34,896 nucleotides of DNA from Melioribacter sp. (lineage in GTDB: Bacteria > Bacteroidota > Ignavibacteria > Ignavibacteriales > Melioribacteraceae). Positions 33,223 to 34,807 of the stretch are shown here, piece by piece (positions within the stretch are counted from its first letter, which is position 1; each line of letters opens with the position of its first letter). The translations under genes and the position numbers were made by a program. A model generated the notes under the pieces. It made no database searches. It was not told the DNA's origin and worked only from the letters and a program-made list of their open reading frames with translations. The stretch spans positions 1 to 34,896 of the forward strand of contig VEPI01000022.1 in NCBI GenBank assembly GCA_012026935.1. Reading direction: 5' to 3'.

Positions 33223-33414
33223 GCATAACGGTGTTGCAACTAAAGCGCCGCTCATAATTACAATGATGCGTTTGGCAACTACCTTTTTTGTTTTAAACTC
33301 AGATTTATTTTTCAAATCAACTTTGAGCAACAAACTTATTCTGAAAAACTAAACCCAACTACCACATCAAACGACTTCGTCAAAGACGCGGTCGCTTTGA
33401 GTTGCGTGTTAGGT
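33223..33414 (-). mobile_element. attC-like recombination site (candidate integron cassette 3' end)
   Basis: Minus strand: ACCTAAC (matches RYYYAAC) ... GTTATGC (near GTTRRRY). Arms CAACT-C-AAAGCG-A-CCGC and GCGG-CGCTTT-AGTTG pair with two bulged bases on one arm. Starts at the stop codon of the ApeA-like ORF. Confidence 0.6.
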
Positions 33415-34796
33415 TACGATTTTAATGTCGTTAATAAATTATAGTCAGGTCGTCTTTTTAACATTTCATCAATCTTATCAAGGCTAAATCCAATCTCAAT
33501 TAATAAGCAGATGATTAAAGTAATTTCAAGGTTATCCATAAGTCTATGAATATCAATTTTGTCAACTTCTGGTTTTAATTTACGATCCAAATGAGTGTAA
33601 TAATTTCTAACTAAAGTAACTTGATGAGCAAAGTCTTTTCTATTGTAAAATTTTGATAAAATATTTTCAGCTAGTTCATATATATCTTTTATTCTTCGAC
33701 GCAGTGATACTTCATCAATGTATTTCAGTTTTTCAGAGATATCTTGCTCATACTTTTTATCAATGTTAGCAAGAATGGTTTGCAGTAATATATCTTTTTC
33801 TTCCTCAGAGTATTTTTTCGTATTTAATTTTCTTCGATGATAGGATTCGAGTGAATTAGATAGATTTAAAAATCTATTTTCTGTGAATAGATTTATGTTG
33901 TTTAGTGTCCCAAGGAATAAACCAATTGTTGGTTGAAGTAATTCTTTGTTGGAAAACCAGTTTTGAAGATACATTTCTATTGAATCATTAATATCTCTTA
34001 GCAGAAAAAGCATATTAAAATGACGGGTCTTTCTAACCCTTTTCTCAAATTCTCCTAAGTGTAAGAATATTTTTACTAGCGGATTATATTCTTTACCATC
34101 TTCAGTAATGGTATTGTGTTTAGTTTTTCCCATTAAATCAATTGGATAGATAGGATTTGATGTTGCCAAAGACAGAAAATGTTGTAGATGACGAATGTAA
34201 AATTCTTCGATCATATCATAAGAATATTCATCTGTAAAAATAAAAGAGAAGAATACTCTTTGCGTAATATTGATGTCTTCGAATATCTCTTTTTTAAAAA
34301 CTGGGTTATGGACTTGTAGAAAAAATGACATTGTTACTTTATCATCAATTTGGATATCTCTTTTTGTGGGTAGTGATTGAGTTAAGACAAGTTTGTTTTC
34401 AAAAATATCTTGTTCTGATTTGAAACCAGCCAATTGTGCCCATTCTTGGGTGTTTGAGAAATGGCAATACATCTCGGAAAACTTAATTTGTGTAGGATCT
34501 GTAAAATGAACATTAAAAAATATTTCAGGCGCAAAGTAATCTGTATATTGATACTTATTCGTTCTAGTGAAATTTGATAAAATACATCTATTGAGGGTTA
34601 TTTTATCACTGGAAGTAGATTCCCCGTTTATTATCACATCATCTTGTTTACCATTAAACAAAGTTCCAAATAATTCTAATGACCCACCATCTTTGGAATT
34701 GTATTTCAATAAACCAGGAACCTTAATTGAATCATCGGATGGTAACCACCATACACCTCTGATCTCAAATTTTTCCATATTTTTATTTTGTAACAT
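33414..34796 (-). CDS. ApeA-like HEPN-domain anti-phage protein
   Basis: N-terminal ApeA-type pattern FEIRGVWWLPSDDSIKVPGLLKYNSKDGGSLELFGTL; C-terminal HEPN nuclease motif RNYYTH (Rx4H) in LVRNYYTHLD. Confidence 0.75.
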   Translation of the reverse strand: MLQNKNMEKFEIRGVWWLPSDDSIKVPGLLKYNSKDGGSLELFGTLFNGKQDDVIINGESTSSDKITLNRCILSNFTRTNKYQYTDYFAPEIFFNVHFTDPTQIKFSEMYCHFSNTQEWAQLAGFKSEQDIFENKLVLTQSLPTKRDIQIDDKVTMSFFLQVHNPVFKKEIFEDINITQRVFFSFIFTDEYSYDMIEEFYIRHLQHFLSLATSNPIYPIDLMGKTKHNTITEDGKEYNPLVKIFLHLGEFEKRVRKTRHFNMLFLLRDINDSIEMYLQNWFSNKELLQPTIGLFLGTLNNINLFTENRFLNLSNSLESYHRRKLNTKKYSEEEKDILLQTILANIDKKYEQDISEKLKYIDEVSLRRRIKDIYELAENILSKFYNRKDFAHQVTLVRNYYTHLDRKLKPEVDKIDIHRLMDNLEITLIICLLIEIGFSLDKIDEMLKRRPDYNLLTTLKS

Positions 34797-34800
34797 AGTA

Positions 34801-34807
34801 ACCTAAC
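34801..34807 (-). mobile_element. GTTAGGT core-site-like box at the 5' boundary of the ApeA cassette
   Basis: Minus strand AGTTAGGTTACTATG: GTTRRRY consensus with the ORF start 4 bp after the box. Identical heptamer to the one at the 3' end (33408-33414 on the plus strand). Confidence 0.5.

What the first reader, a model, noticed from the sequence alone, without database searches (positions are those of the whole stretch)
33223..34807. ApeA-like anti-phage gene packaged as an integron-type gene cassette
On the minus strand the layout is GTTAGGT, 4 bp, ATG...ORF...TAA overlapping ACCTAAC, hairpin, GTTATGC. This is the classical cassette layout: minimal 5' leader, one ORF, attC at the 3' end. 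Predicted cassette, cut between G and TT of each core, is about 34806 to 33229 (~1.58 kb). The ORF carries ApeA N-terminal and HEPN Rx4H signatures. A defence gene in a cassette from this lineage would mean horizontally exchangeable immunity.
Basis: partly seen in the sequence, partly recalled or inferred. Interest (0 to 1): 0.85.

Follow-up and report, generated by a model that had tools for sequence, protein, structure and literature searches.

The report
ApeA defence gene in integron cassette
A bacterium of the Melioribacteraceae carries a predicted anti-phage gene of the ApeA family as the first removable gene cassette of a chromosomal integron, so the immunity gene sits in the slot where integrons insert and usually express newly captured genes.

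Summary
The 460-aa ORF at 33414-34796(-) is an ApeA-family protein (ApeA_NTD1 plus Apea-like HEPN; R-x4-H conserved). It sits in a 1,578-bp cassette, 34806 to 33229. The 192-nt hairpin at 33414-33223(-) is a true attC. It aligns with attC sites beside integron integrases of relatives: a 23-bp stem with two bulges, 95.7% of cells paired, 13 covarying pairs. A covariance model built only from relatives finds it at 101.6 bits (E 7.6e-14 genome-wide). The ApeA cassette is therefore the first cassette, and intI should lie just off the contig end. In same-genus genomes the orthologous site holds intI, attI and at least 25 attCs (G031), an attI remnant with another cassette (G030), or nothing (G029). 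ApeA is absent from all 80 other family genomes searched. Chromosomal integrons are known in Ignavibacteriae, and defence cassettes are known in Vibrio and mobile integrons, so this is a new member of a known kind, extended to a distant phylum. Phage defence, expression and cassette mobility are inferred, not shown.

The parts
33229..34806 (-). ApeA gene cassette, 1,578 bp, cut between G and TT of both core sites
   Evidence: core sites read; inverted repeat; attC model hit
33414..34796 (-). ORF, 460 aa, ApeA-family protein: beta-rich ApeA_NTD1 (residues 11-280) and Apea-like HEPN (310-440)
   Evidence: Pfam, PADLOC, homologue alignment, AlphaFold2 model mean pLDDT 85 with beta-rich N-terminal half and all-helical C-terminal half
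33591..33608 (-). HEPN ribonuclease motif R397-N-Y-Y-T-H402 (R-x4-H)
   Evidence: R397, N398, T401 and H402 invariant in 15 homologues
33223..33414 (-). attC recombination site, 192 nt
   Evidence: covariation with 9 attCs of relatives; model R1 built from relatives only, 101.6 bits; z = -3.0 for the circle-junction form, whose centroid is the attC fold
33388..33414 (-). 5' arm of attC: R'' ACCTAAC (33414-33408) and L'' GCAACT-C-AAAGCG-A-CCGC; unpaired C at 33399 and A at 33392 (G and T on the other strand)
33223..33251 (-). 3' arm of attC: L' GCGGCGCTTTAGTTGC, spacer AACACC, R' GTTATGC (33229-33223; TTATGC belongs to what follows the cassette)
34801..34896 (-). attI site (partial, cut by the contig end) with core GTTAGGT; conserved motif GCAGTATAAGTAATAGTT
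   Evidence: 72-80% identity over 54-70 bp to segments just downstream of intI in six genomes, 40-64 bits against at most 33.7 bits in 20 shuffles
34844..34876 (-). imperfect palindrome in attI (GATATATATGCA..TGCATATCTACG), more perfect in relatives' attI sites; role unknown
   Evidence: alignment, folds
1..27936 (.). conserved chromosomal flank on the distal side of the integron site
   Evidence: collinear at about 85-91% with G029:C30 and collinear in G031, G025 and G028

Best explanation
This is a complete integron gene cassette carrying an ApeA-family HEPN gene. It sits at the first position (attI) of a sedentary chromosomal integron of a Melioribacteraceae bacterium. The integron is of the co-oriented layout: intI, attI and cassettes run in the same direction. 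Shown by sequence: the attC, the attI, the cassette boundaries, the ApeA domains, and the variable content of the orthologous integron site in sister genomes. Inferred from established integron biology: an IntI encoded just beyond the contig end recognises the folded single-stranded attC and inserted the circular cassette at attI, where the gene is read from an integron or attI-borne promoter. Inferred from family membership: the HEPN RNase is held inactive until phage infection and then cleaves RNA, stopping phage growth (abortive-infection type). Because it is a single-gene cassette it can be gained, lost or shelved by integrase action.
For: ApeA domains well over cut-off and PADLOC defence profiles; R-x4-H invariant. 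attC: 95.7% paired cells, 13 pairs with compensatory change, covariation score 0.541 against 0.153 in shuffles and at most 0.096 in slid controls; independent model hit E 7.6e-14 genome-wide. attI: matches post-intI segments in six genomes. Same chromosomal site in G031 carries intI, attI and at least 25 attCs, with the other flank next to intI; G025 also has that flank, then intI, then attI. 70 of 81 family genomes have attC hits and 38 of 81 have an intI over the curated cut-off. ApeA is found in none of the 80 other family genomes and only as one 27%-identical copy in the wider order.
Against: The intI next to this attI is not in the assembly: contig C93 ends inside attI, and the opposite flank (C174) ends before any intI. 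No closely related genome with the same locus minus exactly the 1,578-bp ApeA cassette was found. The predicted minimum-energy fold of the attC is a competing structure; the attC fold is the centroid of the junction form. No promoter could be assigned. Defence activity of this protein is untested, and no solved structure resembles it.
Confidence: 0.87

Rival explanations
1. A relict: the cassette is real but frozen. The integrase of this locus has been lost or broken in this genome, and ApeA is simply an inherited gene with a leftover attC.
For: No intI is seen beside this attI in the assembly; sister genome G030 shows this state at the same site, an attI remnant with one cassette, a degenerate attC and no intI over the cut-off.
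Against: All 16 L-stem pairs of the window's attC are intact and the core sites at the two cassette ends are exactly complementary, so there is no sign of decay; the contig ends where intI should begin, so absence is not demonstrated; other integron parts exist in the genome (C16 intI N-terminus, C53 and C169 attCs).
Confidence: 0.1
2. The cassette is real, but the HEPN protein is a toxin or stress-dormancy RNase rather than a phage-defence effector; HEPN cassettes have been proposed to induce dormancy under stress.
For: Anantharaman et al. 2013 (PMC3710099) propose exactly this for integron-borne HEPN domains; no phage test is available here.
Against: It carries the ApeA-specific N-terminal domain and matches PADLOC defence families; the two roles may not be exclusive.
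Confidence: 0.2
3. The attC is shorter: 62 nt, 33414-33353, with R' GTTGGGT, and the remaining 130 bp is something else.
For: The 62-nt hairpin scored highest in a crude arm scan and its R' fits GTTRRRY.
Against: The 192-nt form has 16 L-box pairs with only two single-base bulges, matches relatives' attCs of 164-226 nt along its length and shares their conserved 3' end.
Confidence: 0.03
4. Chance hairpin or transcription terminator next to a chromosomal gene.
For: Hairpins after stop codons are common.
Against: Compensatory changes across ten sites, model E-value 7.6e-14 and a matching attI at the other end.
Confidence: 0.01

Closest known systems
Defence cassettes of sedentary chromosomal integrons in Vibrio (Darracq et al. 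2025; Getz et al. 2025; as reviewed in PMC12409362)
   Same: Single small defence genes with a 3' attC in a chromosomal cassette array.
   Different: Phylum Ignavibacteriota; ApeA family; first position at attI rather than a mostly silent interior position; intI co-oriented with the cassettes; attCs of about 160-226 nt.
Defence cassettes of mobile integrons (Kieffer et al. 2025, cited in PMC12409362)
   Same: Anti-phage gene as integron cassette.
   Different: Here chromosomal at a conserved site, not on a plasmid or transposon.
Treponema chromosomal integrons (Wu et al. 2013, PMC3607928)
   Different: Different phylum; no sequence comparison of the sites was made.
Chromosomal integrons of Ignavibacteriae/Chlorobi (IntegronFinder 2.0, PMC9024848)
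   Same: Complete integrons already reported in Ignavibacteriae.
   Different: That paper names the clade in passing; the passage read gives no defence cassette or locus comparison.
ApeA (HEPN) anti-phage family; ApeA-NTD1 plus Apea-HEPN architecture (Anantharaman et al. 2013, PMC3710099)
   Same: Domain architecture and R-x4-H motif.
   Different: I found no paper in the library describing ApeA in an integron cassette; that paper's integron HEPN family (PDB 3jrt) is listed as a separate family.

Membership tests
Integron gene cassette | attC site: R''/R' core sites and L boxes forming a bulged hairpin | tested here: met
Integron gene cassette | one ORF, minimal 5' leader, start core exactly complementary to its own R'' | tested here: met
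   GTTAGGT at the start, ACCTAAC at the end, 4 nt from core to ATG
Integron gene cassette | excision and insertion by IntI | not testable with these tools
   needs an assay
Chromosomal (sedentary) integron | attI beside the first cassette | tested here: met
   34801-34896 matches post-intI attI of six relatives
Chromosomal (sedentary) integron | intI gene adjacent to attI in this genome | tested here: inconclusive
   contig ends in attI; intI adjacent at the same locus in G031 and G025; N-terminal intI fragment on C16 belongs to another site
Chromosomal (sedentary) integron | array of many attC cassettes | tested here: inconclusive
   one strong attC in the window and three in the whole draft genome; at least 25 at the orthologous site of G031
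ApeA anti-phage family | ApeA N-terminal domain plus Apea-like HEPN | tested here: met
ApeA anti-phage family | HEPN R-x4-6-H catalytic motif | tested here: met
   RNYYTH
ApeA anti-phage family | protection against phage | not testable with these tools
   needs plaque assays
Mobile (class 1-5 type) integron | association with transposon or plasmid | tested here: not met
   site lies between collinear chromosomal genes in sister genomes

The most novel reading that the evidence does not exclude
Melioribacteraceae keep a near-universal chromosomal cassette platform of the Treponema-like co-oriented layout at inherited sites, and use its first position to swap abortive-infection genes such as ApeA in and out, i.e. 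an integron-driven immune locus in a phylum far from the gammaproteobacteria where such platforms have been studied.
Probability: 0.3. Interest if true: 0.65.

Novelty: new member of a known kind. Interest (0 to 1): 0.5.

Why it matters
Defence genes in integrons were shown in 2025 for Vibrio chromosomal integrons and for mobile integrons. This case shows the same arrangement, with an ApeA HEPN effector caught at the attI position, in a distant environmental phylum. It comes with a comparative series at one chromosomal site (no integron, a remnant with another cassette, a full array, ApeA at first position) that makes cassette turnover of immunity genes directly testable.

Tried and rejected
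A first arm scan anchored at R'' favoured a 62-nt attC; rejected after comparison with relatives. Rfam gave nothing at gathering thresholds. A DNA search of the window attC in its own genome was uninformative except for C169 and C4; the C4 match is only a 27-bp 5'-arm-like stretch after an rsgA-like gene, and the attC model did not report it. The tandem beta-lactamase-family genes, S41 peptidase and 179-aa gene between 28.1 and 33.2 kb were tested as further cassettes: the model with filters off finds no second attC there. The C71 integrase-like stretch is a broken fragment without an array. The C8 IntI has no attI-like sequence downstream and lies beside phage-like genes. The genome-collection scan for close ApeA relatives found none; close homologues (96, 76, 75, 69%) exist only as metagenome proteins whose contigs could not be fetched. 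Structure searches gave no match.

Full report
What is there. The window is one complete contig (G000:C93) of a 176-contig draft genome. On the minus strand its right end reads: 89 bp of contig end, GTTAGGT (34807-34801), TACT, then a 460-codon ORF (34796-33414) whose TAA overlaps ACCTAAC (33414-33408), then a structured stretch ending in GTTATGC (33229-33223). The protein has ApeA_NTD1 and Apea-like HEPN domains, both far over cut-off, and matches the PADLOC profiles PDC-S58 and Cas13-ApeA. The R-x4-H HEPN motif is invariant across 15 homologues, the others being 23-96% identical to the window's protein. An AlphaFold2 model (mean pLDDT 85) shows a mostly beta N-terminal half and an all-helical C-terminal half; no solved structure matches it by sequence or fold.

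The attC is real. A curated integron-integrase model (TIGR02249) is exceeded in 38 of 81 genomes of the same family. I fetched integrase loci of relatives, searched them with a simple arm-pairing scan and found hairpins of 164-226 nt with core-like ends. Nine of these and the window's hairpin align. The structure read off them (7-bp R box, 16-bp L stem, two bulged bases, C and A on this strand, so G and T on the other) has 95.7% paired cells, 13 pairs with changes on both sides, and a covariation score of 0.541 against 0.153 in shuffles and at most 0.096 in slid controls. A covariance model built without the window finds the window site at 101.6 bits, E 7.6e-14 over the whole genome. In this genome it also finds C53:2342-2523 and part of C169. 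In the family it hits 70 of 81 genomes. In the excised-circle form (R' replaced by the cassette's own GTTAGGT) the centroid structure is the attC fold, although the single lowest-energy fold is a competing one.

The attI is real too, and changes the picture. So ApeA is the first cassette and intI is expected just beyond the contig end. In 11 of 12 relatives where both were mapped, intI and attC lie on the same strand with the cassettes downstream of the intI 3' end. That is the atypical layout described for Treponema (PMC3607928). The window fits this layout.

The chromosomal site. One flank of the integron (rny, coaE, proline dehydrogenase, tsaD, mltG, Ig-like protein; names by my reading of the translations) and the other (window 27.9 kb down to 1) are conserved in the genus. 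At this site G031 has the first flank, then intI, then attI on contig C4, and at least 25 same-strand attCs running into the second flank on contig C1; that C4 joins C1 is inferred from this synteny. G025 has the first flank, then intI, then attI at a contig end. G030 has an attI remnant, one 262-aa cassette gene and a degenerate attC, with no intI over the cut-off. G029 has no attC there. In the window's genome the first flank is on C174, which ends before any intI. ApeA occurs in none of the other 80 family genomes and once, at 27% identity, in the wider order.

Lineage. A window protein (a BamG-family protein) matches Melioribacter sp. nzgw155 at 94%; its contig length of 96,079 bp equals that of G029:C30. 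The next matches are Ignavibacteriales MAGs at 86-89%. Melioribacter is in Melioribacteraceae, Ignavibacteriota.

How it most likely works. Shown: cassette anatomy, attC, attI, domains, site variability. Inferred from established integron knowledge: IntI recombines the folded attC with attI and inserts the cassette in first position. Inferred from the family: HEPN RNase activated by infection. Expression from an integron promoter is plausible, but no promoter could be assigned. The conserved palindrome in attI has no assigned role.

Known or new. Complete integrons in Ignavibacteriae were noted before (PMC9024848). Defence cassettes were shown in V. cholerae, V. parahaemolyticus and mobile integrons in 2025 (reviewed in PMC12409362). 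HEPN domains in integron cassettes were noted in 2013, in a family listed separately from ApeA (PMC3710099). I found no paper in the library describing ApeA as a cassette. The finding is therefore a new member of a known kind, in a new phylum for defence cassettes as far as I could search.

Defence content of such arrays. Of 30 cassette or cassette-like ORFs scanned from this genome and relatives, PADLOC hits at 1e-5 were the window's ApeA, one TIR-type effector, one mads_2 hit and one doubtful desaturase hit. ApeA is thus not evidence that these arrays are mainly defence islands.

Noticed in passing
G000:C169 (L031) 1-3997: Two further cassette-like genes with exactly complementary core sites at their ends (GTTAGGC/GCCTAAC and GTTATAC/GTATAAC). 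An IS110-type transposase gene lies between them, apparently inside an attC, and a second attI class (GATTAATTAATAGTTAGGC) precedes the first gene.
   Followed up: partly
G000:C53 (L127) 1-2523: A whole contig that is one cassette: a 771-777-aa ORF followed by an attC (93.9-100.1 bits) cut by the contig end.
   Followed up: partly
G000:C8 (L029) 2413-3390: IntI-clade integrase with an IntI-type extra stretch (LPDGIANKYPGA) on a short contig next to a gene that reads like a lambda-type phage portal protein, without attI or attC; possibly a phage-borne integron integrase.
   Followed up: no
G000:C16 (L032) 1-160 and L081 (G029): N-terminus of another intI at a contig end; the rest of the contig is collinear with a second integron locus in G029 (next to a DUF5916-like gene and clpB), so the genome probably has at least two integrons.
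   Followed up: partly
window 1-5357 and L078 (G020) 3-5922: In G020 an intI and the same attI type follow the orthologues of the cytochrome oxidase genes at the other end of this window, so the integron site differs between species of the genus.
   Followed up: partly
window 28087-28687: The 179-aa gene is kept at the distal end of the array in G031, and similar DNA occurs at scattered places in other genus members; possibly an old cassette gene. Just upstream, 28660-28742 looks like a hybrid of a 5' and a 3' attC arm that do not pair.
   Followed up: partly
window 30576-32972: Two tandem paralogous serine beta-lactamase-family lipoproteins downstream of the cassette, without attC; similar tandem copies elsewhere in G029 and G030.
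   Followed up: no
attI sites in L074, L075, L077, L078, L079, L082 and window 34844-34876: A conserved palindrome about 40 bp before the attI core, between intI and the first cassette; could be a terminator, integrase-binding or regulatory element.
   Followed up: partly
81 genomes of the family: attC sites in 70 of 81 genomes but intI over the cut-off in only 38, with many attCs on contigs without intI; attCs in this family are long (about 160-226 nt).
   Followed up: partly
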